Made by a program: the position numbers and the translations under genes. From Mytilisepta virgata (taxonomy: Eukaryota > Mollusca > Bivalvia > Mytilida > Mytilidae), in the NCBI GenBank assembly GCA_028015205.1, contig CM051514.1:40936150-41000149 (forward strand): a stretch of 64,000 bases of DNA, in the 5' to 3' direction. How positions within the stretch are numbered: position 1 is the first letter of the stretch; every line of letters begins with the position of its first letter. Below are positions 36,047 to 51,999 of the stretch, one piece after another. The notes under the pieces were generated by a model. It had not been told where the DNA came from. It did not search any database and was given only the letters and a program-made list of their open reading frames with translations.

Positions 36047-36472
36047 GATTTAAATAAACACTTATGCACATATTTTAAATGTATTTTTGTTTGAAATTAC
36101 GGAAGAAGAATAAAACAAATTAAAAACATTCTCCTTCGAGTGGGTAGAGATATATTTAGACAGGTCACACGACAAATAATGTAAAAATGGATAATGGTTG
36201 GTTTTATCACTTTGTGCAAAGTAAACATCCGAGCAATCCAAAAACCAACTAAGTTAGGAATTCCTCTGAACTTTGCCTTACTTCTTCATAATCTTCAAAG
36301 TTCATAATGTTTATAGTTAGGAGAAATTGCATAATGGTAGAAAAAACAATCCTGAATACATGAAGCGGAAACATCCCACTCGAAGGAGAATGTTTTTAAT
36401 TTGTTTTATTCTTCTTCCGTAATTTCAAACAAAAATACATTTAAAATATGTGCATAATTGTTTATTTAAATC
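36047..36472. mobile_element. 426-bp foldback element
   Basis: The ends GATTTAAATAAACA and TGTTTATTTAAATC begin ~98-bp inverted repeats that match with a single mismatch, up to CTTCGAGTGGG and its complement (about 36144 and 36375). The ~230-bp loop has no coding content. The left end abuts the end of the 11.7-kb element exactly, sharing the bases GAT. Confidence 0.9.
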
Positions 36473-36479
36473 AATGTGT

Positions 36480-36795
36480 TAAAATGATGCATTCGAGAAC
36501 CTTCTAAGGGATATGTTGGGAGAATTCATACCGGAAAAGTCCATGCAAATTCCATTTGCACATAAACAAAACTGCAGTTTAAAATTTATAAATTCAGATT
36601 GTCAAATCCGATAATAACCTTTACAATCTGAACCATACATCGTTTATTTTAAACCACGCGTTTTGCCGCCTATTCGGCTAATTCGTAAATTTAGTATTAT
36701 AGATAATTAGTAATTAATAAGTAACTGGTGCTAAATTAAGCGTATTTAACACTAAGAAACATCAAAACTTGTTATCTCTGGCCAATAATCAGCCA
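36480..36795. other. No gene recognised
   Basis: AT-rich unique-looking sequence; no motif. Confidence 0.45.
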
Positions 36796-36798
36796 ATA

Positions 36799-36903
36799 GG
36801 CCCTTGGGACCAGCTAGGAATGTTTTTTTTTTAGGTTTTGTCACTATTTAATGTCATTGAATCAGTTTCTCACACAATTTAAACTTTTCTGTGTATTGTC
36901 TGA
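36799..36903 (+). mobile_element. Foldback MITE, left-arm outer part (split by the palindrome)
   Basis: This stretch ('ttctcacacaattt', 'ctgtgtattgtctga') is inverted at 51893-51993. Its continuation lies at 51378 onward on the far side of the 14.5-kb palindrome. The last eight bases (TTGTCTGA, 36896-36903) are the left copy of the target duplication. Confidence 0.85.
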
Positions 36904-36954
36904 GTAGTATGTGGGGACAGTTCAGGTCGCATTTGAGGTGGTGCTGAGGTGGTG

Positions 36955-37350
36955 CTACCGGAAGTGACGTCAACCGGAAATGACGTCACCGGAAGTGACG
37001 TGACCGGAACCGGAAGTCAGATGACCGGAACCGGAAGTGATTTTTGCGCGCATGCGCAACCGGAAGTGGGTAGTTTTCCCGCCCTTTGTTGCTGGAAGTG
37101 ACGCAAGTCACGTGCTAGGACCCGGATGTGTGTTCTGCGCATGTTCAGGAACCGGAAGTACCCGGAAGTGGTTTGCGCAACCGGAAGTAGGGTGTTTTTT
37201 CCGCCATTTGTTGACGGAAGTGACGAAAGTCACGTGGTAGGACCCGGATGTATGTTCTGCGCATGTTCGGGCGGAACCGGAAGTGGTTGGTGCAACCGGA
37301 AGTAGTGGGTTTTCTCCATTGACGGAAGTGACGCAAGTCACGGACCCGGA
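36955..37350 (+). promoter_or_regulatory. Left terminal block rich in ETS/CRE/E-box/NRF1-like motifs
   Basis: Ten exact CCGGAAGT words, two TGACGTCA, two CACGTG and one GCGCATGCGC lie within ~390 bp of GC-rich DNA, in ~120-bp tandem units (starts near 37055, 37177, 37292). These are the core words of ETS/GABP, CREB/ATF, E-box and NRF1 binding. They could serve host-factor recruitment or be transposase-binding subterminal repeats. The short frames here come from the repeats. Confidence 0.6.
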
Positions 37351-37359
37351 TGTGCCATG

Positions 37360-38100
37360 CTTGACCAGATCGAATTATCTCCCTTTCATCGGTCTGATAC
37401 CCTCACTGTTATGTCGAAGTCCGAGAGTATACGAAGTACACTATTGGATTATCTCCCCTTATCCCGCTCTTTTCATTTGGGGGTATTTTCTGTGAGGACC
37501 AACGGTAGGATTGGATTATGTCCCCTTACCTCCAAGTAATGCTGTCAACAATGGATGGGTGTCCTTAGCAACGGCGGTCCATTTCATTGCATTCACTTCT
37601 CTTCTCTTGCTCCATCCCGCTCCTCGCTGCTCTTCTCTTGCTCCGTGCTGCTCATCGCTACTCAGGCTTGTTGCTGTTCGTCATCGCTGCTCTTCTCTTG
37701 CTCTTTGCTGCTCAACGCTGCTCTGCACTGTACTCAGACCTGAAAGCACCCTAAAGACAATCGTTTACCCTAACACTAGTACCACTTCAAATTCATAAGG
37801 GATTGAGCCAGATTGAATTATCTCCCTTTTCCCGCTCTTCTCGGTCGTCTCTGGATCTTTGATTGAATTATCTCCCCTTATCCCGCTCTTTTCATCTGTG
37901 AGTGATGTTTTCTGTGAGGACTAGGATTGGATTATGTCCCCTTACCTCAAGTTGATGCTTGTCACCGCTCAATGGAGGGGTGTCCTTAGCAACGGCGGTC
38001 TATTTCATTGCTCTATGCTTCGCTTCTCTTCGCTTGCTCTTCGCTGCTCCATGCTGCTCATCGCTAATAATGACTATATTCACCTGCTGATTTAAGATTC
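37360..38100 (+). repeat. Left arm repeats between terminal block and minisatellite
   Basis: Repeated phrases 'gaattatctcccttttcccg', 'attatctccccttatcccgc' and 'tgtccttagcaacggcggtc' each occur two or more times, along with early pieces of the minisatellite word ('tcttctcttgct', 'tgctgctcatcgct'). The 60-95-codon frames are repeat-derived; no motif. Confidence 0.6.
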
Positions 38101-38149
38101 TTGGGGTTACTTGTCGGTGTTTTCGCTGCTGCTTCCGCTCCTGCTGCTT

Positions 38150-40310
38150 ATTGGTGTTCGTCATTGCTGCTCTTATCTTGTTCATCGCTGTTTTTCTCGT
38201 GCTCTTTGCTGCTCGTCGCTGTTTTTCTCTTGTTCTTTGTTGCTCATCACTGTTTTTCTCTTGCTCTTTACTGCTCATCACTGTTTTTCTCTTGTTCTTT
38301 ACTGGTCGTCACTGTTTTTCTCGTACTCTTTGCTGCTCATCGCTGTTTTTCTCTTGCTCGTTACTGCTTATCGCTGTTTTTCTCTTGGTTTTTGTAGCTC
38401 GTCGCTGTTTTTCTCGTGCTCTATGCTGCTCGTCGCTGTTTTTCTCTTGTTCTTTGCTGCTCGTCGCTGTTTTTCTCTTGTTCTTTGCTGCTCATCGCTG
38501 TTTTTCTCTTGTTTTTTGTTGCTCATCACTGTTTTTCTCTTGTTCTTTACTGCTCGTCGCTGTTTTTCTCTCGTTCTTTACTGCTCATCGCTGTTTTTCT
38601 CTTGGTCTTTACTGCTTATGGCTGTTTTTCTCTCGCTCTTTGTTGATCATCACTGTTTTTCTCGTACTCTTTGCTGCTCATCGCTGTTTTTCTCTTGTTC
38701 TTTGCTGCTCATCGCTGTTTTTCTCTTGTTCTTTACTGCTCATCACTGTTTTTTCTCTTCTTCTTTACTGCTCGTCGCTGTTTTTCTCTCGTTCTTTACT
38801 GCTCATCGCTGTTTTTCTCTTGCTCTTTACTGCTTATGGCTGTTTTTCTCTCGCTCTTTGTTGATCATCACTGTTTTTCTCGTACTCTTTGCTGCTCATC
38901 ACTGTTTTTCTCTTGTTCTTTACTGCTCGTCGCTGTTTTTCTCTCGTTCTTTACTGCTTATCGCTGTTTTTCTCTTGCTCTTTACTGCTTATGGCTGTTC
39001 TTCTCTCGCTCTTTGTTGATCATCACTGTTTTTCCTCGTACTCTTTGCTGCTTATCGCTGTTTTTCTCGTACTCTTTGCTGCTTATCGCTGTTTTTCTCT
39101 TGTTCTTTGTTGCTCATCACTGTTTTTCTCTTGCTCGTTACTGCTTATCGCTGTTTTTCTCTCGTTCTTTACTGCTCATTGCTGTTTTTCTCGTGCTCTT
39201 TGCTGCTTATGGCTGTTCTTCTCTCGCTCTTTGTTGCTCATCACTGTTTTTCTCTTGCTCTTTACTGCTCGTCGCTGTTTTTCTCGTACTCTTTGTTGCT
39301 CATCACTGTTTTTCTCTTGCTCTTTATTGCTCATCACTGTTTTTCTCTTGTTCTTTACTGGTCATCGCTGTTTTCCACGTGCTCTTTGCTGCTCATCGCT
39401 GTTTTTCTCGTGCTCTTTGCTGCTCATCGCTGTTTTTCTCTTGGTTTTTGTAGCTCGTCGCTATTTTTCTCGTGCTTTTTACTGCTCGTCGCTGTTTTTT
39501 CTCTTGTTCTTTGTTGCTCATCACTGTTTTTCTCTTGCTCTTTATTGCTCATCACTGTTTTTCTCTTGTTCTTTACTGCTTATCGCTGTTTTCCACGTGC
39601 TCTTTGCTGCTCATCGCTGTTTTTCTCGTGCTCTTTACTGCTCATCGCTGTTTTTCTCTCGCTCTTTGTTGCTCATCGCTGTTTTTCTCTTGGTTTTTGT
39701 TGCTCGTCACTGTTTTTCTCGTGCTGTTTACTGCTCGTCGCTGTTTTTTCTCTTGTTCTTTGTTGCTTATCACTGTTTTTCTCTTGCTCTTTACTGCTCA
39801 TCACTGTTTTTCTCTTGTTCTTTACTGCTTATCGCTGTTTTTCTCTTGGTTTTTGTAGCTCATCGCTGTTTGTCTCTTGCTCTTTACTGCTCATCGCTGT
39901 TTTTCTCTTGCTCTATGCTTCTCATCGCTGTTTTTCTCTTGTTTTTTGTTGCTCATCACTGTTTTTCTCTTGCTCTTTACTGCTCATCACTGTTTTTCTC
40001 TTGTTCTTTACTGGTCATCGCTGTTTTTCTCTTGCTCTTTACTGCTCATCGCTGTTTTTCTCTTGCTCTATGCTTCTCATCGCTGTTTTTTCTCTTGTTC
40101 TTTGTTGCTCATCACTGTTTTTCTCTTGCTCTTTACTGCTCATCAATTTTTTTCTCTTGTTCTTTACTGGTCATCGCTGTTTTTCTCTCGTTCTTTACTG
40201 CTCATCGCTGTTTTTCTCTTGCTCTTTACTGCTTATGGCTGTTTTTCTCTCGCTCTTTGTTGCTCATCACTGTTTTTCTCTTGTCCTTTGTTGTTCATCG
40301 CTACTCCTTA
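38150..40310 (+). repeat. 31-bp minisatellite, left arm (~70 units)
   Basis: The unit is about 'tgctcatcgctgtttttctc' plus 'ttgctctttac'. Because 31 is not a multiple of three and the unit lacks stops in any plus-strand frame, all three frames stay open, giving overlapping frames of up to 612 and 524 codons. The translations are Leu/Phe/Cys/Ser runs repeating every 31 residues. I treat them as by-products, not genes. Confidence 0.9.
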
Positions 40311-40735
40311 CCTTACTCGCGTGCTTATTTCGTTTTTTGGGGCTACTTGTCTCTGTTTTCGCTGCCACTACTGCTCCTGCTGCTTTTTGCTGTTCGTTAT
40401 CGCTGCTCTTCTCTTGCTCATCGCTTTTTTTTCTCTTGCTCATCGCTGATCCTTTCTTGTTCTTTGCTGCTCATCCCTACTCAGGGCCTTACTCGCGTGC
40501 TCATTTCTGCTCATCTCTTGCTCATCGCTGCTCACAACTGCTCTTCTCTTGCTCATTGCTGCTCATCACTGCTCATCGCTGCTCTTCTCTTGCTCTTTGC
40601 TGCTCATCCCTACTCAGGACCTTACTCGCGTGCTCATTTCGCTCCTGCTGCTGCTACGCAAGGAATGGGGTTTACTGCTGATGATCGGAAGGCCACTCGG
40701 TACTCATGTTGTCGGTTTGATTGGTAGATCAAGAC
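40310..40735 (+). repeat. Degenerate edge of the minisatellite, left arm
   Basis: Looser pieces ('ctcatcgctgctcttctctt', 'ttactcgcgtgctcatttc' twice) connect the minisatellite to the gene block. No gene of its own. Confidence 0.6.
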
Positions 40736-40803
40736 TGATCGTGGTGATTGTATACTGGGATATTTATCGACGACCAACACAAACGAAAGTTTCATATTTT
40801 ATT

Positions 40804-41322
40804 TTACATTTTTACAAAATCTACATCAGTCAATGTTTTAAGTTCTGGTTCTTTCTCTTCAAACAAAGGTATGATCTTCTTCAGTTCTTGCCATTCGTAG
40901 GAACTCAGCGTTATACCTCTCTTGGTTGGCTGTAAAGTCAGTTCTCCGTTAGGCACGAAATATTTTCTGACGTGAATGATAGGCGAGGGTGCTTTAATGA
41001 TGACATAAACATCTTCTCCCAGATGATATGTCCAGTCCACCGGTTCTTTGTCCTTGATTCTGGTGACCAAGTCGTCCACCACTTCTGTGGTACTGCACAA
41101 CATTTTCCACTGCATTAACGACAGGCTGACTCCGGTCTTGGTGGGCACCGTTTCACTTTCCCAAAATCTGAGATCTACTCTTTTACTGCCATTCCATTCT
41201 GTCAGCTCTGCATAACGTCCTCCACCCAATGGTACTTTCAAAGGAATATCGGAATCTGTCATGGCGTCTTGGACGATCTCGCTCTCGGTCTGGTCTTTGG
41301 TTTTCTTTTCTTTACGTGGCAT
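40804..41322 (-). CDS. Tandem PC4-like DNA-binding protein (left-arm copy), 172 aa
   Basis: Mirror copy of the gene at 46921-47439, with an identical translation; see that entry for the domains. Here it is on the minus strand, with TATA/initiator at 41330-41363 and AATAAA just after the stop (40798-40803). Confidence 0.8.
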   Translation of the reverse strand: MPRKEKKTKDQTESEIVQDAMTDSDIPLKVPLGGGRYAELTEWNGSKRVDLRFWESETVPTKTGVSLSLMQWKMLCSTTEVVDDLVTRIKDKEPVDWTYHLGEDVYVIIKAPSPIIHVRKYFVPNGELTLQPTKRGITLSSYEWQELKKIIPLFEEKEPELKTLTDVDFVKM

Positions 41323-41329
41323 ATCGGCT

Positions 41330-41363
41330 GACTGATTCTTCTTCTTGCTGGTCTATTTATATA
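41330..41363 (-). promoter_or_regulatory. TATA and initiator of the PC4-like gene, left arm
   Basis: Mirror of 46880-46913: TATATAAATAG and TCAGTC read on the minus strand. Confidence 0.65.
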
Positions 41364-41448
41364 CATATATTTGTGAAGATGGATTGGATTGGTTCTTATA
41401 TTATGAAACGTGAAACAGGATTGGCTATCTTTCCGACATCGTGATTGG

Positions 41449-41679
41449 TTAACTTCTCCCGTTCCGATTGGTCGAAAATCTGACATTTTCATTGGTCAAT
41501 TCCAACCGTTTCGATAGATCAACACGATGGTACACTGTCCAAATATGTGGCGCCCAATCCGGAAACTGCTCACAATAGGTACGAGTAAACGCCGACAATA
41601 CGATCAGTCTTCCTTGGTTCACCACACCGTCTTCGAACATGGCAGTGACGATTCTCTCGTATACTTGGAAGGGGTCCAT
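41449..41679 (-). CDS. Hypothetical 76-aa protein (left-arm copy)
   Basis: Mirror copy of 46564-46794, same translation (starts MDPFQVYERIV). The start is chosen at the first ATG downstream of the promoter-like element at 41685-41720. Confidence 0.5.
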   Translation of the reverse strand: MDPFQVYERIVTAMFEDGVVNQGRLIVLSAFTRTYCEQFPDWAPHIWTVYHRVDLSKRLELTNENVRFSTNRNGRS

Positions 41680-41879
41680 CGTACGAATGACTTCTCTGAC
41701 TATCTTCACTTCCTTTTATACATTTATGACATGAGACTACTCTGCATTGACAAACTTGTAACTGTCTACATATATACATGTATATATAGTGTTGCCAGAA
41801 GATCCCGATACCGGGGTTTTGTATCTGAGGCACTGGCAGTCCACCCGGACAGAGGAAAATACCGACAATCGTGTTCAGG

Positions 41880-42194
41880 ATGAACGAGATTACATCCGCC
41901 ACCTTTCCTGATATGGTTCGCCACACATTCAACCTACAAAATACGACCTTCAAGATCAACGTGTCGTTTGGATTTATACTGAGAAACGCAGAGACCGGAG
42001 AACTAAGATACTTCCATTCCAGGACGGGGACGAATGTTCTCTGTCTCGATGATGTTAGATGGACATCAAAGATGGCTGCACCCATTCTCTTGCTTTTTGC
42101 TGCTCATCGCTGTTTTTCTCTTGCTCTGCTAATGATGACCTTACCTCATTTCAGTTTTGGGGCAACTTGTCGCTGTTTTCGCCGCTGTTGCTAG
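41880..42194 (+). CDS. Hypothetical 104-aa protein, divergent gene (left-arm copy)
   Basis: It starts MNEITSATFPDMV. Residues up to ~64 read like a folded, conserved domain (INVSFGFILRNAETGELRYF, TGTNVLCLDD). I have an impression of similar wording in uncharacterised proteins of cnidarian and mollusc mobile elements but cannot name it. The C-terminal third (MAAPILLLFAAHRCFSLALL) runs into a piece of the minisatellite unit, so the frame has probably been extended by repeat DNA after losing its original end. It is divergent from the 76-aa gene (41449-41679) across ~200 bp holding a TATA-rich palindrome (41768-41788). Confidence 0.45.
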   Translation: MNEITSATFPDMVRHTFNLQNTTFKINVSFGFILRNAETGELRYFHSRTGTNVLCLDDVRWTSKMAAPILLLFAAHRCFSLALLMMTLPHFSFGATCRCFRRCC

Positions 42195-42261
42195 TGGTGG
42201 TCGATTGTCGTTAGTCAAAGATTGGATCTGTGCGAGAGCACCCTTAGATCCGGGTTATTTA

Positions 42262-42410
42262 AAAGTCCACTCTGCATTTATCCAGGCTTGTGACTGGCTA
42301 TCATAAGATAGGCTGCATTAATCCTGCTCAATTTTTTAAGGGCACTCTGCATTTGTCCAGGCTTGTGACTGGCTATATATATGTATAAACATATATAGGC
42401 TGCATTACCC
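42262..42410. repeat. Two-copy direct repeat, left arm
   Basis: 'actctgcattt.tccaggc', 'ttgtgactggctat' and 'taggctgcatta' occur at 42267-42319 and 42344-42406. The mirror is at 45835-45980. Confidence 0.75.
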
Positions 42411-42472
42411 TTCCTCCCTTTTTTTGTTATATTTTTTTCTGTTTTTCTTTGTAATATGTTCCAATTCCTCCG

Positions 42473-43040
42473 TCACATAGAGTCATTGCTGTCTTCAGCT
42501 GGAGGTGGGTCGTAGTCGTTCAATACACGGTTAAGCAGATATTTTCGTTTTTCTGCGGCCTAATCCCATGATTCTTTTGATTCGTAGTCTTCCTATTCTC
42601 TCCAGCGTTTAGCCGTTTTTCTTGATCTCTCTATGTACGGGGTCTTTATTTATGTCTTGATGCCAGGACACCAGTCCGAGGTAATGCTTTCGTATTTCGT
42701 CTCTGTATGAGTCAAACATGTCTCTATATGCTGCCAAGCGTGCCTTGTCTTCTTCCATTCCGGCTTCCACTACTTCGTTTACTGTCTGTGAGTATTCCGA
42801 TTGATGTACTTGAAATGTTATGTTCAAAACGACTTCCCATAGGGACTGTTCGCAAAGCTCTTCGGAGTCTTCGTTGGATCCATGGTCACTACTTTGTTCC
42901 GATTCATCGTTATCGGCTTCTGTGGTGGTGTCTGAAGCTGAATCACTATAGTCTGTTGAATCCTCTTCAATACCATGTGCATTCTTTTTGTGTCGCACTA
43001 GGTTAAAGTTTTGCTTGGATTGGTATCCACAGGTATACAT
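42473..43040 (-). pseudogene. Degenerate C2H2-type gene (left-arm copy)
   Basis: Mirror of 45203-45770. The 143-codon frame (42609-43040) ends where a one-base shift in an A-run breaks it; the shifted frame continues to 42473 with two TAG codons, as in the other arm. Differences from the right copy are few (for example Thr for Ala in LNITF/LNIAF). Confidence 0.6.
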
Positions 43041-43499
43041 TTAAGACGTCTTTATTTCCTGGTAGTCGATAGCAGAATGAGTTCCGGTCGTCCTGCAAGT
43101 GCTTATATTAGATACAGGTTCCTCAGCGGCTTGTTGATTCATACACAAGCGTTTGGCAAAGTATTCGTTTCGACATTGTTGCAGTTCAGATTTCACTTTT
43201 CTGATGAGGTCTCTTTTAAGTCTTTTCCACTCGTTGTCAATCCTTCTACATCCCTTGCAGATATTCATGTTTTTGTAGAAGTCCGCAAAGCTCTTGTTCG
43301 TTTGACACTTTTTACATTTCTTGTTTGGATCCACTTTATTGGGTCCTCCACTTGTGTTATCCAGCCGTTTGGTTCTCTTCACTTTGGTTAGAAGTAATTT
43401 CCTTTTCCTTTGTGGTTTTGCGTTGGTGTTAGAAAGATCCACAGGTATTAAATATCTAGCAGGAACCACTAAATCAACGAGAGGCGTTTTCGATGCCAT
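43041..43499 (-). CDS. Cys4 zinc-ribbon protein (left-arm copy), 152 aa
   Basis: Mirror of 44744-45202, differing at residue 3 (MASKTP here, MAPKTP there). See that entry. Confidence 0.6.
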   Translation of the reverse strand: MASKTPLVDLVVPARYLIPVDLSNTNAKPQRKRKLLLTKVKRTKRLDNTSGGPNKVDPNKKCKKCQTNKSFADFYKNMNICKGCRRIDNEWKRLKRDLIRKVKSELQQCRNEYFAKRLCMNQQAAEEPVSNISTCRTTGTHSAIDYQEIKTS

Positions 43500-43532
43500 T
43501 GATACGTGTGTGTTGTTTGACGGTCTTCAAAC

Positions 43533-43566
43533 AACTGACGAAATTAAACAAAACCTCTGATTATAT
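43533..43566 (-). promoter_or_regulatory. Promoter-like element of the zinc-ribbon gene, left arm
   Basis: Mirror of 44678-44710 (TATAAT-type box and TCAGTT on the minus strand). Confidence 0.45.
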
Positions 43567-43679
43567 TTTCGTTAAAAGCTTTTCATTGGTGTCATAGAGA
43601 CGAAGATTACCCCACACAGTTCGCTGTTCGTTGTTGCTATTGCTGCTGAGGAGGTGAAGGTGGGATTCTCACTGTTTCG

Positions 43680-43935
43680 TTATAAGTCACCTCTTAGTCT
43701 CGTTGATGTTTCGCTGGATACAAAAGATGGCTGCCTCCATGTAACGCGGACCTGAAAGAGAGCACCCTTATGAAATAGAAGTTTTAGAGTCTTTCCGGAC
43801 GGGAACGAATGTTCCCAGTCTCGTTGATGTTACGATGGACATCAAAGATTGCTGCGCCCAAGTAACGCGGACCTAAAAGAGAGCACCCTAATGAAACGAA
43901 AATTTCAGAGTCTTTCCGGACGGAAACGAACGTTT
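43680..43935 (+). repeat. ~125-bp direct repeat, two copies, left arm
   Basis: Units share 'agtctcgttgatgtt.cg.tgga', 'aaagat.gctgc', 'agtaacgcggacct.aaagag' and 'gagtctttccggacgg'. They are mirrored at 44310-44560. The repeats sit between the gene block and the telomere-like array. Confidence 0.8.
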
Positions 43936-43943
43936 ACGGATTT

Positions 43944-44030
43944 CAGTCCTAACCCTAACTCCAGACCTAACCCTAACCTTAACTCTAACCCTAACCCTAA
44001 CTCTAACCCTAACCCTAGTCCTGCTTCTAA
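43944..44030 (+). repeat. CCCTAA telomere-like array, left of the hinge
   Basis: About a dozen CCCTAA/TCTAAC-type units with some degenerate ones. The mirror on the other side of the hinge reads TTAGGG. Reading left to right the order is CCCTAA-hinge-TTAGGG, opposite to what a telomere-telomere fusion would give. Confidence 0.85.
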
Positions 44031-44099
44031 CCCTTATCGTAGGTCTGTCTCGTACTCCTACTCTAACCGGTCCATACCTCACGTCGTTGGATCACCTAA

Positions 44100-44137
44100 G
44101 CAAGCGTGACTGTTTGCCTCGTGTTTGTCACGCTTGC
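44100..44137. other. Palindrome hinge
   Basis: GCAAGCGTGAC (44100-44110) and GTCACGCTTGC (44127-44137) pair across a 16-bp loop (44111-44126). The next ~45 bp on either side are homologous but diverged (around 44065-44099 against 44138-44165), then the arms become nearly identical. The short diverged zone at the axis is what one expects of an old inverted duplication rather than a read-through artefact. Confidence 0.85.
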
Positions 44138-44206
44138 ACCAGTGAACCACCGGCGTGGGATATGGACCGGTTAGAGTAGGAGTACGAGACAGACCTACGA
44201 TAAGGG

Positions 44207-44300
44207 TTAGAAACAGGACTAGGGTTAGGGTTAGAGTTAGGGTTAGGGTTAGAGTTAGGGTTAGGGTTAGGGTTAGGTCTGGAGTTAGGGTTAGGACTGA
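44207..44300 (+). repeat. TTAGGG telomere-like array, right of the hinge
   Basis: Mirror of 43944-44030. Units are mostly GGGTTA with interspersed GAGTTA. Both strands give Arg/Val or Pro/Asn open frames (66-86 codons) that are repeat by-products. Confidence 0.85.
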
Positions 44301-44677
44301 AATCCGTAAACGTTCGTTTCCGTCCGGAAAGACTCTGAAATTTTCGTTTCATTAGGGTGCTCTCTTTTAGGTCCGCGTTACTTGGGCGCAGCCATCTTTG
44401 ATGTCCATCGTAACATCAACGAGACTGGGAACATTCGTTCCCGTCCGGAAAGACTCTAAAACTTCTATTTCATAAGGGTGCTCTCTTTCAGGTCCGCGTT
44501 ACATGGAGGCAGCCATCTTTTGTATCCAGCGAAACATCAACGAGACTAAGAGGTGACTTATAACGAAACAGTGAGAATCCCACCTTCACCTCCTCAGCAG
44601 CAATAGCAACAACGAACAGCGAACTGTGTGGGGTAATCTTCGTCTCTATGACACCAATGAAAAGCTTTTAACGAAAA

Positions 44678-44710
44678 TATAATCAGAGGTTTTGTTTAAT
44701 TTCGTCAGTT
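44678..44710 (+). promoter_or_regulatory. Promoter-like element of the zinc-ribbon gene
   Basis: A TATAAT-like box (44678-44683) lies 29 bp before TCAGTT (A at 44707), 37 bp upstream of the ATG at 44744. It is weaker than the two other TATA boxes of the arm but has the same spacing. Confidence 0.45.
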
Positions 44711-44743
44711 GTTTGAAGACCGTCAAACAACACACACGTATCA

Positions 44744-45202
44744 ATGGCGCCGAAAACGCCTCTCGTTGATTTAGTGGTTCCTGCTAGATATTTAATACCT
44801 GTGGATCTTTCTAACACCAACGCAAAACCACAAAGGAAAAGGAAATTACTTCTAACCAAAGTGAAGAGAACCAAACGGCTGGATAACACAAGTGGAGGAC
44901 CCAATAAAGTGGATCCAAACAAGAAATGTAAAAAGTGTCAAACGAACAAGAGCTTTGCGGACTTCTACAAAAACATGAATATCTGCAAGGGATGTAGAAG
45001 GATTGACAACGAGTGGAAAAGACTTAAAAGAGACCTCATCAGAAAAGTGAAATCTGAACTGCAACAATGTCGAAACGAATACTTTGCCAAACGCTTGTGT
45101 ATGAATCAACAAGCCGCTGAGGAACCTGTATCTAATATAAGCACTTGCAGGACGACCGGAACTCATTCTGCTATCGACTACCAGGAAATAAAGACGTCTT
45201 AA
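44744..45202 (+). CDS. Cys4 zinc-ribbon basic protein (right-arm copy), 152 aa
   Basis: The N-terminal half is very basic (QRKRK and KRTKR, residues 30-46), suggesting nuclear location or nucleic-acid binding. A Cys4 cluster follows: C62xxC65 and C81xxC84, around SFADFYKNMNICKGC, resembling the small zinc ribbons found in phage and mobile-element proteins, then a charged helix (DNEWKRLKRDLIRKVKSELQ). The stop TAA is directly followed by the ATG of the next frame (45203), so the two genes abut without spacing. The frame is intact in both arms with one residue difference. A specific function cannot be named. Confidence 0.6.
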   Translation: MAPKTPLVDLVVPARYLIPVDLSNTNAKPQRKRKLLLTKVKRTKRLDNTSGGPNKVDPNKKCKKCQTNKSFADFYKNMNICKGCRRIDNEWKRLKRDLIRKVKSELQQCRNEYFAKRLCMNQQAAEEPVSNISTCRTTGTHSAIDYQEIKTS

Positions 45203-45770
45203 ATGTATACCTGTGGATACCAATCCAAGCAAAACTTTAACCTAGTGCGACACAAAAAGAATGCACATGGTATTGAAGAGGATTCAACAGACTATAGTGA
45301 TTCAGCTTCAGACACCACCACAGAAGCCGATAACGATGAATCGGAACAAAGTAGTGACCATGGATCCAACGAAGACTCCGAAGAGCTTTGCGAACAGTCC
45401 CTATGGGAAGTCGTTTTGAACATAGCATTTCAAGTACATCAATCGGAATACTCACAGACAGTAAACGAAGTAGTGGAAGCCGGAATGGAAGAAGACAAGG
45501 CACGCTTGGCAGCATATAGAGACATGTTTGACTCATACAGAGACGAAATACGAAAGCATTACCTCGGACTGGTGTCCTGGCATCAAGACATAAATAAAGA
45601 CCCCGTACATAGAGAGATCAAGAAAAACGGCTAAACGCTGGAGAGAATAGGAAGACTACGAATCAAAAGAATCATGGGATTAGGCCGTAGAAAAACGAAA
45701 ATATCTGCTTAACCGTGTATTGAACGACTACGACCCACCTCCAGCTGAAGACAGCAATGACTCTATGTGA
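45203..45770 (+). pseudogene. Degenerate C2H2-type gene (right-arm copy)
   Basis: The first 143 codons start with half of a C2H2 finger: TCGYQSKQNFNLVRHKKNAH keeps both His and one Cys, but the first Cys would fall at the initiator Met, so the true start may be lost or spliced. An acidic linker (SDSASDTTTEADNDESEQSS) and a helical region (DKARLAAYRDMFDSYRDEI, YLGLVSWHQDINKDPVHREI) follow. A one-base shift in the A-run near 45622 then changes frame; the shifted frame resumes protein-like text (KRWRE, EDYESKESWD, AVEKRKYLLNRVLNDYDPPP) but with two TAG codons, ending at TGA 45768-45770. Both arms share these lesions. Confidence 0.6.
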
Positions 45771-45834
45771 CGGAGGAATTGGAACATATTACAAAGAAAA
45801 ACAGAAAAAAATATAACAAAAAAAGGGAAGGAGG

Positions 45835-45985
45835 GTAATGCAGCCTATATATGTTTATACATATATATAGCCAGTCACAAGCCTGGACAAATGCAGAGTG
45901 CCCTTAAAAAATTGAGCAGGATTAATGCAGCCTATCTTATGATAGCCAGTCACAAGCCTGGATAAATGCAGAGTGGACTTTTAAA
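45835..45985. repeat. Two-copy direct repeat, right arm
   Basis: Mirror of 42262-42410; contains 'tgcagcctat', 'atagccagtcacaagcctgg' and 'aaatgcagagtg' twice. Confidence 0.75.
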
Positions 45986-46048
45986 TAACCCGGATCTAAG
46001 GGTGCTCTCGCACAGATCCAATCTTTGACTAACGACAATCGACCACCA

Positions 46049-46363
46049 CTAGCAACAGCGGCGAAAACAGCGACAAGTTGCCCCAAAACTGAAATGAGGT
46101 AAGGTCATCATTAGCAGAGCAAGAGAAAAACAGCGATGAGCAGCAAAAAGCAAGAGAATGGGTGCAGCCATCTTTGATGTCCATCTAACATCATCGAGAC
46201 AGAGAACATTCGTCCCCGTCCTGGAATGGAAGTATCTTAGTTCTCCGGTCTCTGCGTTTCTCAGTATAAATCCAAACGACACGTTGATCTTGAAGGTCGT
46301 ATTTTGTAGGTTGAATGTGTGGCGAACCATATCAGGAAAGGTGGCGGATGTAATCTCGTTCAT
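46049..46363 (-). CDS. Hypothetical 104-aa protein, divergent gene (right-arm copy)
   Basis: Mirror of 41880-42194, same translation. It runs opposite to its neighbours; the ~200-bp gap to the 76-aa gene (46564) holds a TATA-rich palindrome near 46455-46475 that could serve this gene. Confidence 0.45.
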   Translation of the reverse strand: MNEITSATFPDMVRHTFNLQNTTFKINVSFGFILRNAETGELRYFHSRTGTNVLCLDDVRWTSKMAAPILLLFAAHRCFSLALLMMTLPHFSFGATCRCFRRCC

Positions 46364-46522
46364 CCTGAACACGATTGTCGGTATTTTCCTCTGTCCGGGT
46401 GGACTGCCAGTGCCTCAGATACAAAACCCCGGTATCGGGATCTTCTGGCAACACTATATATACATGTATATATGTAGACAGTTACAAGTTTGTCAATGCA
46501 GAGTAGTCTCATGTCATAAATG

Positions 46523-46558
46523 TATAAAAGGAAGTGAAGATAGTCAGAGAAGTCATTC
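46523..46558 (+). promoter_or_regulatory. TATA and initiator of the 76-aa gene
   Basis: TATAAAAG (46523-46530) is 32 bp before an initiator-like TCATTC (A at 46555). The first ATG after it is 46564. An upstream in-frame ATG (46534) would lie between TATA and start site, so 46564 is the better start. Confidence 0.6.
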
Positions 46559-46563
46559 GTACG

Positions 46564-46794
46564 ATGGACCCCTTCCAAGTATACGAGAGAATCGTCACTG
46601 CCATGTTCGAAGACGGTGTGGTGAACCAAGGAAGACTGATCGTATTGTCGGCGTTTACTCGTACCTATTGTGAGCAGTTTCCGGATTGGGCGCCACATAT
46701 TTGGACAGTGTACCATCGTGTTGATCTATCGAAACGGTTGGAATTGACCAATGAAAATGTCAGATTTTCGACCAATCGGAACGGGAGAAGTTAA
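46564..46794 (+). CDS. Hypothetical 76-aa protein with faint BH1-like motif (right-arm copy)
   Basis: It starts MDPFQVYERIV just 9 bp after a well-placed initiator. The segment AMFEDGVVNQGRLIVLSAF recalls the BH1 motif of Bcl-2 family proteins (F..DG..N.GR.....F), but has one extra residue and Gln in place of the usual Trp, and no BH2 or BH3 can be seen in 76 residues. Downstream are WAPHIWTVYHRVDLSKRLEL and a polar tail. It is identical in the two arms. The product may be real but its function is open; a Bcl-2-type role is a lead only. Confidence 0.45.
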   Translation: MDPFQVYERIVTAMFEDGVVNQGRLIVLSAFTRTYCEQFPDWAPHIWTVYHRVDLSKRLELTNENVRFSTNRNGRS

Positions 46795-46879
46795 CCAATC
46801 ACGATGTCGGAAAGATAGCCAATCCTGTTTCACGTTTCATAATATAAGAACCAATCCAATCCATCTTCACAAATATATG

Positions 46880-46913
46880 TATATAAATAGACCAGCAAGA
46901 AGAAGAATCAGTC
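46880..46913 (+). promoter_or_regulatory. TATA and initiator of the PC4-like gene
   Basis: TATATAAATAG (46880-46890) lies 30 bp before TCAGTC, an arthropod/metazoan-type initiator with A at 46910. The ATG is at 46921, giving an 11-bp leader. Spacing and sequence are textbook for a Pol II core promoter. Confidence 0.7.
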
Positions 46914-46920
46914 AGCCGAT

Positions 46921-47439
46921 ATGCCACGTAAAGAAAAGAAAACCAAAGACCAGACCGAGAGCGAGATCGTCCAAGACGCCATGACAGATTCCGATATTCC
47001 TTTGAAAGTACCATTGGGTGGAGGACGTTATGCAGAGCTGACAGAATGGAATGGCAGTAAAAGAGTAGATCTCAGATTTTGGGAAAGTGAAACGGTGCCC
47101 ACCAAGACCGGAGTCAGCCTGTCGTTAATGCAGTGGAAAATGTTGTGCAGTACCACAGAAGTGGTGGACGACTTGGTCACCAGAATCAAGGACAAAGAAC
47201 CGGTGGACTGGACATATCATCTGGGAGAAGATGTTTATGTCATCATTAAAGCACCCTCGCCTATCATTCACGTCAGAAAATATTTCGTGCCTAACGGAGA
47301 ACTGACTTTACAGCCAACCAAGAGAGGTATAACGCTGAGTTCCTACGAATGGCAAGAACTGAAGAAGATCATACCTTTGTTTGAAGAGAAAGAACCAGAA
47401 CTTAAAACATTGACTGATGTAGATTTTGTAAAAATGTAA
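46921..47439 (+). CDS. Tandem PC4-like DNA-binding protein (right-arm copy), 172 aa
   Basis: The PC4 (Sub1/p15) family binds single-stranded DNA and acts in transcription and DNA repair. Two PC4-like repeats can be seen. Residues ~29-77: a beta-rich stretch GGRYAELTEWNGSKRVDLRF, then TKTGVSLSLMQWKML. Residues ~100-155: EDVYVIIKAPSPIIHVRKYF, then TKRGITLSSYEWQELKKI. Both show the family signature: strands with a (V/I)D/HxR step, a K.G(V/I)(S/T)L turn and a QW/EW helix. The N-terminus is charged (KEKKTKD), the C-terminus acidic. It is intronless, with a strong TATA/initiator upstream and AATAAA (47440-47445) directly after the stop. Identical in both arms, which argues for recent function or homogenisation. 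Confidence 0.8.
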   Translation: MPRKEKKTKDQTESEIVQDAMTDSDIPLKVPLGGGRYAELTEWNGSKRVDLRFWESETVPTKTGVSLSLMQWKMLCSTTEVVDDLVTRIKDKEPVDWTYHLGEDVYVIIKAPSPIIHVRKYFVPNGELTLQPTKRGITLSSYEWQELKKIIPLFEEKEPELKTLTDVDFVKM

Positions 47440-47445
47440 AATAAA
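47440..47445 (+). terminator. Polyadenylation signal of the PC4-like gene
   Basis: AATAAA directly after the TAA (47437-47439), as in compact viral-style genes. Confidence 0.6.
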
Positions 47446-47507
47446 ATATGAAACTTTCGTTTGTGTTGGTCGTCGATAAATATCCCAGTATACAATCACC
47501 ACGATCA

Positions 47508-47935
47508 GTCTTGATCTACCAATCAAACCGACAACATGAGTACCGAGTGGCCTTCCGATCATCAGCAGTAAACCCCATTCCTTGCGTAGCAGCAGCAGGA
47601 GCGAAATGAGCACGCGAGTAAGGTCCTGAGTAGGGATGAGCAGCAAAGAGCAAGAGAAGAGCAGCGATGAGCAGTGATGAGCAGCAATGAGCAAGAGAAG
47701 AGCAGTTGTGAGCAGCGATGAGCAAGAGATGAGCAGAAATGAGCACGCGAGTAAGGCCCTGAGTAGGGATGAGCAGCAAAGAACAAGAAAGGATCAGCGA
47801 TGAGCAAGAGAAAAAAAAGCGATGAGCAAGAGAAGAGCAGCGATAACGAACAGCAAAAAGCAGCAGGAGCAGTAGTGGCAGCGAAAACAGAGACAAGTAG
47901 CCCCAAAAAACGAAATAAGCACGCGAGTAAGGTAA
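47508..47935 (-). repeat. Degenerate edge of the minisatellite, right arm
   Basis: Mirror of 40310-40735; contains 'gagcagcgatgagcaagaga' words and 'gagcacgcgagtaagg' three times. Confidence 0.6.
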
Positions 47936-50095
47936 GGAGTAGCGATGAACAACAAAGGACAAGAGAAAAACAGTGATGAGCAACAAAGAGCGAGAGAAAA
48001 ACAGCCATAAGCAGTAAAGAGCAAGAGAAAAACAGCGATGAGCAGTAAAGAACGAGAGAAAAACAGCGATGACCAGTAAAGAACAAGAGAAAAAAATTGA
48101 TGAGCAGTAAAGAGCAAGAGAAAAACAGTGATGAGCAACAAAGAACAAGAGAAAAAACAGCGATGAGAAGCATAGAGCAAGAGAAAAACAGCGATGAGCA
48201 GTAAAGAGCAAGAGAAAAACAGCGATGACCAGTAAAGAACAAGAGAAAAACAGTGATGAGCAGTAAAGAGCAAGAGAAAAACAGTGATGAGCAACAAAAA
48301 ACAAGAGAAAAACAGCGATGAGAAGCATAGAGCAAGAGAAAAACAGCGATGAGCAGTAAAGAGCAAGAGACAAACAGCGATGAGCTACAAAAACCAAGAG
48401 AAAAACAGCGATAAGCAGTAAAGAACAAGAGAAAAACAGTGATGAGCAGTAAAGAGCAAGAGAAAAACAGTGATAAGCAACAAAGAACAAGAGAAAAAAC
48501 AGCGACGAGCAGTAAACAGCACGAGAAAAACAGTGACGAGCAACAAAAACCAAGAGAAAAACAGCGATGAGCAACAAAGAGCGAGAGAAAAACAGCGATG
48601 AGCAGTAAAGAGCACGAGAAAAACAGCGATGAGCAGCAAAGAGCACGTGGAAAACAGCGATAAGCAGTAAAGAACAAGAGAAAAACAGTGATGAGCAATA
48701 AAAAGCAAGAGAAAAACAGTGATGAGCAACAAAGAACAAGAGAAAAAACAGCGACGAGCAGTAAAAAGCACGAGAAAAATAGCGACGAGCTACAAAAAAT
48801 AAGAGAAAAACAGCGATGAGCAGCAAAGAGCACGAGAAAAACAGCGATGAGCAGCAAAGAGCACGTGGAAAACAGCGATGACCAGTAAAGAACAAGAGAA
48901 AAACAGTGATGAGCAATAAAGAGCAAGAGAAAAACAGTGATGAGCAACAAAGAGTACGAGAAAAACAGCGACGAGCAGTAAAGAGCAAGAGAAAAACAGT
49001 GATGAGCAACAAAGAGCGAGAGAAGAACAGCCATAAGCAGCAAAGAGCACGAGAAAAACAGCAATGAGCAGTAAAGAACGAGAGAAAAACAGCGATAAGC
49101 AGTAACGAGCAAGAGAAAAACAGTGATGAGCAACAAAGAACAAGAGAAAAACAGCGATAAGCAGCAAAGAGTACGAGAAAAACAGCGATAAGCAGCAAAG
49201 AGTACGAGGAAAAACAGTGATGATCAACAAAGAGCGAGAGAAGAACAGCCATAAGCAGTAAAGAGCAAGAGAAAAACAGCGATGAGCAGTAAAGAACGAG
49301 AGAAAAACAGCGACGAGCAGTAAAGAACAAGAGAAAAACAGTGATGAGCAGCAAAGAGTACGAGAAAAACAGTGATGATCAACAAAGAGCGAGAGAAAAA
49401 CAGCCATAAGCAGTAAAGAGCAAGAGAAAAACAGCGATCAGCAGTAAAGAACGAGAGAAAAACAGCGACGAGCAGTAAAGAAGAAGAGAAAAACAGTGAT
49501 GAGCAGTAAAGAACAAGAGAAAAACAGCGATGAGCAGCAAAGAACAAGAGAAAAACAGCGATGAGCAGCAAAGAGTACGAGAAAAACAGTGATGATCAAC
49601 AAAGAGCGAGAGAAAAACAGCCATAAGCAGTAAAGACCAAGAGAAAAACAGCGATGAGCAGTAAAGAACGAGAGAAAAACAGCGACGAGCAGTAAAGAAC
49701 AAGAGAAAAACAGTGATGAGCAACAAAAAACAAGAGAAAAACAGCGATGAGCAGCAAAGAACAAGAGAAAAACAGCGACGAGCAGCAAAGAACAAGAGAA
49801 AAACAGCGACGAGCAGCATAGAGCACGAGAAAAACAGCGACGAGCTACAAAAACCAAGAGAAAAACAGCGATAAGCAGTAACGAGCAAGAGAAAAACAGC
49901 GATGAGCAGCAAAGAGTACGAGAAAAACAGTGACGACCAGTAAAGAACAAGAGAAAAACAGTGATGAGCAGTAAAGAGCAAGAGAAAAACAGTGATGAGC
50001 AACAAAGAACAAGAGAAAAACAGCGACGAGCAGCAAAGAGCACGAGAAAAACAGCGATGAACAAGATAAGAGCAGCAATGACGAACACCAATAAG
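47935..50095 (-). repeat. 31-bp minisatellite, right arm (~70 units)
   Basis: Mirror of 38150-40310. On the plus strand it is purine-rich ('agagaaaaacagcgatgagc' plus 'agtaaagaaca'). The order of unit variants is the same as in the left arm, with only a few differing units, so the arms were copied as a whole rather than expanded separately. Confidence 0.9.
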
Positions 50096-50099
50096 CAGC

Positions 50100-50925
50100 A
50101 GGAGCGGAAGCAGCAGCGAAAACACCGACAAGTAACCCCAAGAATCTTAAATCAGCAGGTGAATATAGTCATTATTAGCGATGAGCAGCATGGAGCAGCG
50201 AAGAGCAAGCGAAGAGAAGCGAAGCATAGAGCAATGAAATAGACCGCCGTTGCTAAGGACACCCCTCCATTGAGCGGTGACAAGCATCAACTTGAGGTAA
50301 GGGGACATAATCCAATCCTAGTCCTCACAGAAAACATCACTCACAGATGAAAAGAGCGGGATAAGGGGAGATAATTCAATCAAAGATCCAGAGACGACCG
50401 AGAAGAGCGGGAAAAGGGAGATAATTCAATCTGGCTCAATCCCTTATGAATTTGAAGTGGTACTAGTGTTAGGGTAAACGATTGTCTTTAGGGTGCTTTC
50501 AGGTCTGAGTACAGTGCAGAGCAGCGTTGAGCAGCAAAGAGCAAGAGAAGAGCAGCGATGACGAACAGCAACAAGCCTGAGTAGCGATGAGCAGCACGGA
50601 GCAAGAGAAGAGCAGCGAGGAGCGGGATGGAGCAAGAGAAGAGAAGTGAATGCAATGAAATGGACCGCCGTTGCTAAGGACACCCATCCATTGGTGACAG
50701 CATTACTTGGAGGTAAGGGGACATAATCCAATCCTACCGTTGGTCCTCACAGAAAATACCCCCAAATGAAAAGAGCGGGATAAGGGGAGATAATCCAATA
50801 GTGTACTTCGTATACTCTCGGACTTCGACATAACAGTGAGGGTATCAGACCGATGAAAGATCCAGAGACGACCGAGAAGTGCGGGAAAAGGGAGATAATT
50901 CGATCTGGTCAAGCATGGCACATCC
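50100..50925 (-). repeat. Right arm repeats between minisatellite and terminal block
   Basis: Mirror of 37350-38100. It holds an extra ~31-bp piece near 50855-50885 ('gatccagagacgaccgagaa'), a local duplication of 50385-50410; this is the main length difference between the arms. Confidence 0.6.
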
Positions 50926-51320
50926 GGGTCCGTGACTTGCGTCACTTCCGTCAATGGAGAAAACCCACTACTTCCGGTTGCACCAACCACTTCCGGTTCC
51001 GCCCGAACATGCGCAGAACATACATTCGGGTCCTACCACGTGACTTTCGTCACTTCCGTTAACAAATGGCGGAAAAAACACCCTACTTCCGGTTGCGCAA
51101 ACCACTTCCGGGTACTTCCGGTTCCTGAACATGCGCAGAACACACATCCGGGTCCTAGCACGTGACTTGCGTCACTTCCGGCAACAAAGGGCGGGAAAAC
51201 TACCCACTTCCGGTTGCGCATGCGCGCAAAAATCACTTCCGGTTCCGGTCACCTGACTTCCGGTTCCGGTCACGTCACTTCCGGTGACGTCATTTCCGGT
51301 TGACGTCACTTCCGGTAGCA
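50925..51320 (-). promoter_or_regulatory. Right terminal block rich in ETS/CRE/E-box/NRF1-like motifs
   Basis: Mirror of 36955-37350, with the same repeated ACTTCCGG, TGACGTCA, CACGTG and GCGCATGCGC words. Confidence 0.6.
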
Positions 51321-51377
51321 CCACCTCAGCACCACCTCAAATGCGACCTGAACTGTCCCCACATACTACTTGTCTGA

Positions 51378-51993
51378 CTAGTTCTCTGACTTAATTAATG
51401 CATTTAGTGATATGCCCAGTTTTTCATCTATCTCAGTCCTTTTCTGTGTGTTGTCGGACTTGTTCATTTAGGGAAATGACCAGTTTTTCATCTATGTTAG
51501 GGAGCAACCATTTGATTTTTAGGGGGAAGCTAGGATAAAATTTGAAATAAAAGAGGCAGGACCAGGGTTTTGGCAAATAAAAAGACAGGATCACTTTGAA
51601 ATCTTTGCATTTGTGTGAAAAAAAATGCACGTCGACCTGCCGGTGTTAACCGGGAAATTTATTGGTTTAAATGAAAATAACAATTTAGACAGCAATATTT
51701 AGCGACCGAAAAAAAAGACCCAGGACCAAAATTTCGACGAAATAATAGACAGAATAAAAATTTGATTCTAGCCCCCCCCCCCCCCCCCCCCCCCTCTAAA
51801 AATCAAATGGCTGCATGTTCCCTTAGAGAAGGAGATAGATGAAAAATTGCATGGCATATCAATAAATGCATTGAGTAAGAGCTAGGAGAACAAGTCAGAC
51901 AATACACAGAATAGTTCAAATTGTGTGAGAAAGTGACATTTTACTGACAAAATCTATAATTTTTTTTTAAATTAATTTCTGGTCCATGGCCTG
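51378..51993 (+). mobile_element. Foldback MITE, remainder after the palindrome
   Basis: This holds the inner left arm (51378-51545), a loop with a long C run (51774-51795) and the right arm (51787-51993). 'ttaggg.agcaaccatttgat' and its complement mark the inner stem. The outer stem pairs with 36799-36903. Together they make a ~0.72-kb element split by the 14.5-kb insertion. Confidence 0.85.
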
Positions 51994-51999
51994 TGCTAA

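What the first reader, a model, noticed from the sequence alone, without database searches (positions are those of the whole stretch)
36904..51369. 14.47-kb nearly perfect palindrome behaving as one mobile element
Seen: two ~7.2-kb arms, reverse complements with few substitutions, a hinge loop of ~16 bp, and an 8-bp direct repeat (TTGTCTGA) at both outer ends. Known: DNA transposons with long inverted repeats exist, but I know of no described animal element whose whole body is a gene-bearing hairpin like this. Inference: it moved as a unit, and as a single strand it would fold into a 7-kb hairpin, suggesting replication via a snap-back linear intermediate or hairpin-end resolution.
Basis: partly seen in the sequence, partly recalled or inferred. 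Interest (0 to 1): 0.93.

Follow-up and report, generated by a model that had tools for sequence, protein, structure and literature searches.

The report
Mirror-image satellites of Maverick transposons
The 14.5-kb mirror-image DNA is one of many mobile copies that are cut-down, hairpin-shaped relatives of a virus-like transposon (a Maverick/Polinton); their two halves stay nearly identical, as if each new copy were made through a folded-back DNA strand.

Summary
The palindrome is real: 36903-51370, arms about 7.2 kb with 28 substitutions, 16-nt hinge loop. It is one of many. The flanking duplication is 6 bp, not 8 (13 of 13 copies with both ends readable), and the ends are AGTAGT...ACTACT: published Maverick/Polinton hallmarks. 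Two non-palindromic copies with the same ends carry PolB-like, integrase, capsid-like, and weakly ATPase- and protease-like genes: the Maverick parent family. Two palindrome types appear among best-scored places: PolB pairs (23) and PC4 pairs like the window (42). None of these 65 spans holds a listed integrase match, so they should move in trans. Arms of a copy differ by 0-0.42%, copies by up to 13%; at 237 sites copies differ while arms agree, and no site differs between arms in two copies. So both arms are matched to each other again and again. Unit length (14.3-15.1 kb, two copies corrected for one-arm changes) is close to the parent's (14.7 and 15.2), suggesting packaging. Best reading: heritable snap-back satellite genomes of a Maverick. 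Replication through a hairpin is inferred, not shown; in-genome gene conversion is the main rival.

The parts
36897..36902 (.). 6-bp target-site duplication, left copy (TGTCTG)
36903..44110 (.). left arm of the palindrome (starts AGTAGTATG)
44111..44126 (.). 16-nt hinge loop between CAAGCGTGAC and GTCACGCTTG; single-strand fold of 44050-44180 z = -11.3
44127..51370 (.). right arm of the palindrome (ends CATACTACT)
51371..51376 (.). 6-bp target-site duplication, right copy (TGTCTG)
50462..51370 (.). outer end, about 90% identical to the left end of the non-palindromic Maverick (L047 600-1470); mirrored in the left arm
47941..50060 (.). 31-bp tandem array, 68 copies, mirrored at 38182-40302; unit resembles L047 1343-1415
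46921..47439 (+). PC4-domain ORF, 172 aa, mirrored at 40804-41322 (-)
   Evidence: PF02229, E 1.9e-18; lies in a segment 94% identical to L047
46528..46791 (+). stop-to-stop frame with weak Bcl-2 similarity (below the Pfam cut-off); mirrored
   Evidence: PF00452, E 0.0011; same frame in the Maverick parent E 0.00052, also below the cut-off
46221..46454 (-). fragment similar to the 5' part of the Maverick PolB gene (81% nt)
44744..45202 (+). hinge-side ORF, 152 aa, cysteine pairs (CKKC...CKGC), no Pfam match; mirrored at 43041-43499 (-)
45203..45634 (+). hinge-side ORF, 143 aa, only sub-threshold C2H2 similarity; mirrored at 42609-43040 (-)
44220..44295 (+). TTAGGG-like repeats beside the hinge; CCCTAA-like mirror at 43948-44017
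44309..44547 (.). two 121-bp hinge-side repeats; similar DNA (84-92%) on the hinge side of the five PolB-type palindromes; mirror at 43696-43934

Best explanation
It is a non-autonomous, palindromic (self-complementary) derivative of a Maverick/Polinton, one of a large family in this genome. Shown: same ends, 6-bp duplications and shared segments as two non-palindromic Mavericks; two palindrome types (one with PolB in each arm, one with PC4 in each arm, like the window); no integrase match in the 65 paired loci; arms match within a copy and differ between copies. Inferred: during protein-primed, strand-displacing replication by a Maverick polymerase, a displaced strand of such a genome folds into one long hairpin whose paired end looks like a normal genome end. 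Copying or mismatch repair in that hairpin makes both arms alike in every cycle and spares the unpaired loop. The product is integrated, and perhaps packaged, by proteins supplied in trans. The first palindromes probably arose by snap-back synthesis at a natural hairpin, like the strong one near the parent's end.
For: Ends and duplication: AGTAGT/ACTACT and 6/6 bp in 13 of 13 copies with both ends readable, matching the (AGT)2//(ACT)2 ends and 6-bp duplications of vertebrate Mavericks (PMC8097293, passages, section 7). Parent: L047 has a 1404-aa ORF with PolB motifs (motif meaning recalled), L041 one of the same length; L047/L048 have PC4, rve + Chromo integrase (6.2e-6 under the cut-off, 5.1e-10), weak Peptidase_C5 and Pox_A32/FtsK matches and a capsid-like protein. 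PolB-type arms are about 97% collinear with it over 6.0-6.3 kb; the window shares an end at 90-95% and the PC4 segment at 94%. Census of best-scored places: 23 PolB +/- pairs and 42 PC4 -/+ pairs, none of the opposite polarity, no same-strand neighbours within 10 kb; integrase in 0 of 23 and 0 of 42 (150 of 152 rows checked), but downstream of 30 of 40 unpaired PolB genes. Arms: within-copy 0-0.42%; 237 sites differ between copies with arms agreeing, 41 differ between arms, 40 of them private to one arm, 0 in two copies (eight copies). Trees pair the arms in 5 of 5 PolB-type copies (bootstrap 86-100) and 3 of 3 window-type copies. E4's out-of-frame stretch in PolB and E10's two PC4 stops (same codons) are in both arms. 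The asymmetric loop is shared by E1, E5, E10. PolB-part dN/dS is 0.17-0.30 in all 6 palindrome-palindrome pairs read in frame.
Against: No replication intermediate, particle or transcript was seen. Concerted arms are also what in-genome gene conversion gives. Loop sharing shows inheritance of the palindrome, not how it replicates. Length matching rests on eight palindromes, two of them corrected by me for one-arm changes and one lacking its left terminus. E5-E10 PC4 shows 5.5 nonsynonymous to 0.5 synonymous changes and E10 has stops, so selection on recent window-type copies is not shown. Pfam found no polymerase family in the 1404-aa ORF. The order of segments on the hinge side is not explained by one simple snap-back step, and the window's hinge shares only 21 bp with the parent's hairpin region. 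E12's arms group with the autonomous copies, not with other palindromes, so recombination or repeated origin must be added.
Confidence: 0.72

Rival explanations
1. The elements are Maverick-derived palindromes, but the arms are kept alike after integration by ordinary gene conversion between the two arms in the chromosome, as in mammalian Y-chromosome palindromes (recalled), not by replication.
For: The same pattern of symmetric differences is expected. The unpaired loop would also be spared.
Against: One-arm changes persist: E12 has a Tc1-like insertion in the left arm only and a 1.84-kb insertion in the right arm only; E2 lacks about 1.55 kb in one arm only; arrays differ 78 against 73 copies in E5; 40 of 41 arm-difference sites are private to one arm. 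Hinge-side DNA shown as 100% identical between several loci points to recent spread as palindromes. None of this excludes slow conversion.
Confidence: 0.2
2. Assembly or sequencing artefact (fold-back reads or collapsed inverted duplication).
For: Large palindromes are a known assembly hazard (general knowledge); raw reads not available here.
Against: Perfect 6-bp duplications at 13 of 13 readable sites, seven of them around palindromes with two long arms (E1, E2, E3, E4, E5, E8, E12); arms carry private differences and private insertions; one polarity per gene over 65 paired loci.
Confidence: 0.02
3. Foldback (FB/TU) or Mutator-like element with long inverted repeats and 8- to 9-bp duplications.
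For: Long inverted arms with a 31-bp tandem array recall Drosophila FB elements (recalled); 8-bp match at the window site and 4 others.
Against: Duplication is 6 bp in 13 of 13; ends, PC4 segment and PolB arms belong to a Maverick.
Confidence: 0.01
4. Two neighbouring insertions head to head, or a local inverted duplication after insertion, gave the palindrome at each locus.
For: Would give mirrored arms.
Against: One duplication brackets the whole pair; hinge-side DNA recurs as mirrored pairs at many loci (16 pairs, 32 of 41 rows) and the loop is shared; only one polarity per gene.
Confidence: 0.03

Closest known systems
Maverick/Polinton (vertebrate set of PMC8097293)
   Same: 6-bp target-site duplication, (AGT)2//(ACT)2 ends, size class, and in the non-palindromic relatives PolB-like, integrase, capsid-like, protease-like, ATPase-like genes
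   Different: Published intact vertebrate elements have inverted repeats of 46-1,447 bp; here the inverted repeats are the whole element (about 7.2 kb) and integrase is absent
Snapback genomes of adeno-associated virus (PMC8235507)
   Same: Self-complementary subgenomes made of either the left (replication gene) or the right half of the parent, dependent on helper functions (passages read)
   Different: AAV is a parvovirus with hairpin telomeres (recalled) and these are particle populations; here the forms are integrated in a chromosome-scale assembly, at tens of loci, with shared loops and long divergence
Palindromic defective adenovirus genomes (symmetric recombinants; recalled; the search listed one unrelated paper)
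   Same: Protein-primed genome duplicated about a hinge, with the same end on both sides
   Different: Laboratory passages, not heritable chromosomal families; not tested here
Drosophila FB / sea urchin TU foldback elements (recalled)
   Same: Long inverted arms with short tandem repeats
   Different: Longer duplications and no Maverick genes

Membership tests
Maverick/Polinton | 6-bp target-site duplication | tested here: met
   13 of 13 copies with both ends readable, window included
Maverick/Polinton | Short direct repeats at the termini, (AGT)2//(ACT)2 | tested here: met
   AGTAGT...ACTACT in those 13 copies against section 7 of PMC8097293
Maverick/Polinton | Terminal inverted repeats of hundreds of bp | tested here: not met
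   About 7.2 kb, the whole element; published range 46-1,447 bp
Maverick/Polinton | Protein-primed PolB | tested here: not met
   Window copy holds only a fragment similar to the PolB gene; PolB-type palindromes and non-palindromic copies hold the ORF
Maverick/Polinton | Retrovirus-like integrase | tested here: not met
   No listed integrase match in the window element or in any of 42 and 23 paired loci; downstream of 30 of 40 unpaired PolB genes
Maverick/Polinton | Capsid, protease and ATPase genes | tested here: not met
   The window arm has no DNA match to those parts of L047/L048; present or weakly matched in L047/L048
Derivative of a Maverick (what it is filed under) | Shared internal sequence and ends with a complete Maverick of the same genome | tested here: met
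   1,063 columns at 94% and 923 at 90% to L047; 459 at 95% to L048
Snapback (self-complementary) replicating genome | Self-complementary molecule with one parental half in each arm | tested here: met
   PolB-type arms equal the parent's left 6.0-6.3 kb. For the window type only an end and the PC4 segment are parental
Snapback (self-complementary) replicating genome | Replicates through a hairpin strand | not testable with these tools
   Only the expected trace, concerted arms, was seen
FB/TU foldback or Mutator-like element | 8- to 9-bp duplication | tested here: not met
   8-bp frame perfect in 5 of 13, 6-bp in 13 of 13
FB/TU foldback or Mutator-like element | Mutator-type transposase | tested here: inconclusive
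   No such Pfam match among the eight frames scanned; not every short frame was scanned

The most novel reading that the evidence does not exclude
Palindromic Mavericks are a self-perpetuating satellite class: mirror genomes inherited for a long time (arms 99.9% alike in a subfamily whose PolB gene is 7-8% diverged), replicated each cycle as a single 7-kb hairpin that erases arm differences, size-matched to the Maverick capsid by stuffer arrays, and spread by helper Mavericks as virus satellites that live in the germline.
Probability: 0.45. Interest if true: 0.9.

Novelty: new variant of a known kind. Interest (0 to 1): 0.82.

Why it matters
Maverick particles have not been observed (abstract of PMC8097293, listed), and their replication is inferred from genes. 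A natural family of mirror genomes that depends on them in trans gives a readable trace of strand displacement, hairpin copying and perhaps size-limited packaging in an animal genome. It would join snap-back subgenomes, seen in virus stocks, with heritable transposons, and it offers a test: arm differences may act as a clock since the last replication. It also warns that long palindromes in assemblies need not be errors.

Tried and rejected
Rejected: 8-bp duplication; foldback/Mutator element; artefact; neighbouring double insertion. Telomere fusion at the hinge: the TTAGGG-like repeats point the wrong way for two chromosome ends joined together, and a few such repeats lie in the parent's subterminal region. 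Empty-site check by a relative of the right flank: the alignment covered 31 bases and did not reach the junction, so it says nothing. IMG/VR scans with PC4, hinge ORF, PolB and integrase pieces: no relatives in 4 of 4. Rfam: no match in 36000-52000. Literature: the listings (6 of 6 papers listed; 20 of 44; 20 of 105; 12 of 22; 2 of 2; 15 of 29) show, by title and start of abstract, no paper on palindromic Mavericks/Polintons; (adintovirus with Bcl-2) found none. on adenovirus palindromes listed 15 of 801 and 1 of 1, none on symmetric recombinants by title. Opened: PMC8097293 (passages, section 7, part 1 of section 14), PMC8235507 and PMC12220804 (passages). The library lacks most subscription papers.

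Dropped rows and mended numbers: in the PolB dN/dS table the six pairs with E4 (of 21) are out of frame and were not used. In one search one arm-difference site of the inner PolB segment was not private. Census pairs rest on best-scored places only (86 of 984, 150 of 1043 and 40 of 1729 candidates; for integrase 150 of 2016 scored, 152 rows). One search used 93 integrase rows; one search added the other 57 listed, with no match in a palindrome. One search printed 14,546 for E12 without its insertions from a wrong right end; one search gives 18,367 in all, and 15,021 without the two insertions.
Full report
1. The observation. The window holds a palindrome at 36903-51370. Aligning the two arms gives 28 substitutions and five gap blocks besides the hinge, 9 of the substitutions at 44077-44099 beside the loop. 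BLAST gives 99.44% over 13,485 columns. The centre is a stem with a 16-nt loop; the strand 44050-44180 folds far better than its shuffles (z -11.3). Chance is not an issue at this length.

2. The ends. In the ten other copies first read, an 8-bp match holds in some only, while a 6-bp match appears if the element is taken as AGTAGTATG...CATACTACT. Of 14 copies examined, 13 have both ends readable; in 13 of 13 the 6-bp duplication is perfect, and an 8-bp reading is perfect in 5. E10 has lost its left terminus. AGT doubled at one end, ACT doubled at the other, and 6-bp duplications are what PMC8097293 reports for vertebrate Mavericks (passages; section 7). That section also gives inverted repeats of 46-1,447 bp and a mean size of 16,862 bp.

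3. The relatives. One outer end (470 bp) gave 40 scored matches out of 2,906 candidates; 24 of the 40 form 12 inverted pairs, the window included, 12.1-20.7 kb apart. Ten of the other eleven pairs were fetched (E9 was not), and two unpaired places later. Three forms share the ends. Type A, like the window (E1): E5 (L037/L038) and E10 (L045/L046), with 31-bp arrays and PC4. Type B: E2, E3, E4, E8, E12, with an ORF of up to 1,404 aa. Type C, not palindromic: E7 (L041/L042) and E11 (L047/L048), with inverted repeats of roughly 1.1 and 0.4 kb. E6 (L039/L040), U1 (L051/L052) and U2 (L053/L054) are unequal-armed. U1 has lost the centre and inner left arm; U2 keeps the hinge with short stretches of the left arm. 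E6 has 0.9-kb inverted ends and an array on one side; its interior matched none of the sequences tried.

4. The parent is a Maverick. E11 carries the 1,404-aa ORF with C2H2 fingers and PolB-like motifs GFNTGKYD, GNSSYGKT, DTDSAY (motif meaning recalled; Pfam gave only zinc fingers), an integrase piece (rve 6.2e-6, under the cut-off; Chromo 5.1e-10), PC4, an ATPase-like ORF (Pox_A32 1.5e-4, under the cut-off), an adenovirus-protease-like ORF (3.4e-3, under the cut-off) and a CARD + PC4 ORF. A 524-aa ORF has 2,239 relatives, some named F54H12.2-like in Mizuhopecten, Pecten and Apostichopus. Of three of these relatives scanned, one, P0175, matches the double jelly-roll family PF21738 at 1.5e-7 and two match nothing.

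5. How the palindromes relate to it. Type B arms are collinear with the left 6.0-6.3 kb of E11 at about 97% in 5 of 5 copies. The window shares 923 columns of end (90%; 459 at 95% with the right end) and a 1,063-column PC4 segment (94%); its 31-bp unit resembles E11 1343-1415. PolB genes of type B point to the hinge, PC4 genes of type A point outwards. Among best-scored places, 46 of 86 PolB matches form 23 +/- pairs (3.8-7.2 kb apart) and 84 of 150 PC4 matches form 42 -/+ pairs (1.6-6.8 kb apart); there are no pairs of the other polarity and no same-strand neighbours within 10 kb. Hinge-side DNA gave 41 rows, 32 of them in 16 -/+ pairs 670-819 bp apart. Integrase lies in none of the 42 or 23 spans, but downstream of 30 of 40 unpaired PolB genes; 28 of the 40 have PC4 downstream. 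Unpaired does not mean non-palindromic: E2 is unpaired here because one arm lost part of PolB. Counts are lower bounds.

6. Concerted arms. In four segments from eight palindromic copies the arms of one copy differ by 0-0.42%, while copies differ by 0.16-13.4%. There are 67, 7, 29 and 134 sites at which copies differ but arms agree in every copy; 16, 8, 13 and 4 sites at which arms differ, of which 16, 7, 13 and 4 are private to one arm; and none at which arms differ in two copies. Trees put the two arms together in 5 of 5 type B copies with bootstrap 86-100, and in 3 of 3 type A copies. An out-of-frame stretch in E4's PolB and two stops in E10's PC4, at the same codons, are in both arms. A divergent subfamily (L055, PolB region 92-93% to E4) has arms 99.86% alike over 2,093 bp around a TTAGGG-like loop of about 940 bp. 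So the palindrome is inherited as such, and its arms are matched again and again.

7. Replication or conversion. After integration the arms drift apart: E12 has a 1.5-kb Tc1-like insertion in one arm and a 1.84-kb insertion in the other, E2 lacks about 1.55 kb in one arm, and array lengths differ in E5. This favours matching at the time of replication without excluding slow conversion. A displaced palindromic strand would fold into a hairpin with a normal-looking duplex end; copying or repair in it would equalise the arms and spare the loop. The loop is in fact asymmetric and shared by E1, E5 and E10. This step is inference.

8. Origin of the hinge. E11 1432-1578 folds into a strong hairpin (z -9.3). 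DNA at the hinge loops of E2 and E3 matches it at 81%, L055 likewise; E4's hinge side matched it only in short pieces. Snap-back at such a hairpin is a plausible start for type B. The window's own hinge shares only 21 bp with that region, and the order of segments beside the type B hinge does not follow from one simple step.

9. Size. Palindromes measure 14,468 (E1), 15,080 (E3), 14,645 (E4), 14,853 (E5), 14,898 (E8), 14,383 without the lost left terminus (E10), 18,367 (E12; 15,021 without its two insertions) and 12,789 (E2; about 14.3 kb with the one-arm deletion counted). The Mavericks E7 and E11 are 14,737 and 15,152. E6, U1 and U2 are shorter (12,096, 11,434, 7,286). PMC8097293 argues that Maverick size is constrained, by analogy with adenovirus capsids. 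Packaging of the palindromes is therefore plausible but unproven; the 31-bp arrays (66-78 copies per arm in E1, E5, E10) may be stuffer.

10. Selection. In the 6 pairs between type B palindromes read in frame, PolB-part dN/dS is 0.17-0.30; in all 15 in-frame pairs 0.15-0.39. For PC4, lineages differ at 0.21-0.36, but E5-E10 shows no constraint on few changes.

11. Place among known things. It works like the snapback genomes of AAV, which hold either the left or the right half of the parent in self-complementary form (PMC8235507, passages). It is not a member of that family. It is a Maverick derivative, not a complete Maverick. The listings seen in the held library show nothing on palindromic Mavericks (several lists were cut).

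Noticed in passing
G000:C7:40824567-40830807 and C7:41093563-41100232: A PolB + PC4 + integrase layout lies about 105 kb upstream of the window and another PC4 pair about 93 kb downstream, on the same contig.
   Followed up: no
window 24367-26417 and 32233-36049: Two 168-bp satellite arrays sit beside a 1.36-kb segment that occurs in inverted orientation (96% identical), perhaps another satellite-bearing mobile element.
   Followed up: no
integrase matches in G000: Many integrase copies about 95-96% identical to the query have one in-frame TGA; this may be a subfamily with a shorter C-terminus or a shared defect.
   Followed up: no
L049 6940-8450: Tc1-like element (DDE_3 2.1e-15) inserted in one arm of the E12 palindrome.
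   Followed up: partly
L048 4020-5000: ORF with CARD (1.9e-6) and a PC4-like stretch (under the cut-off) in the non-palindromic Maverick; with the weak Bcl-2-like frame it hints at cell-death-related accessory genes.
   Followed up: no
P0137: A Maverick capsid-like protein is filed under a Bathymodiolus gill symbiont, probably host DNA in a symbiont record.
   Followed up: no
E12 (L049/L050): Palindromic copy whose PolB arms group with the autonomous copies E7/E11 rather than with the other palindromes, while its hinge side matches the others.
   Followed up: partly
E6 (L039/L040): Copy with the family's ends and a one-sided 31-bp array but an interior that matched neither the window, E11 nor E4.
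   Followed up: no
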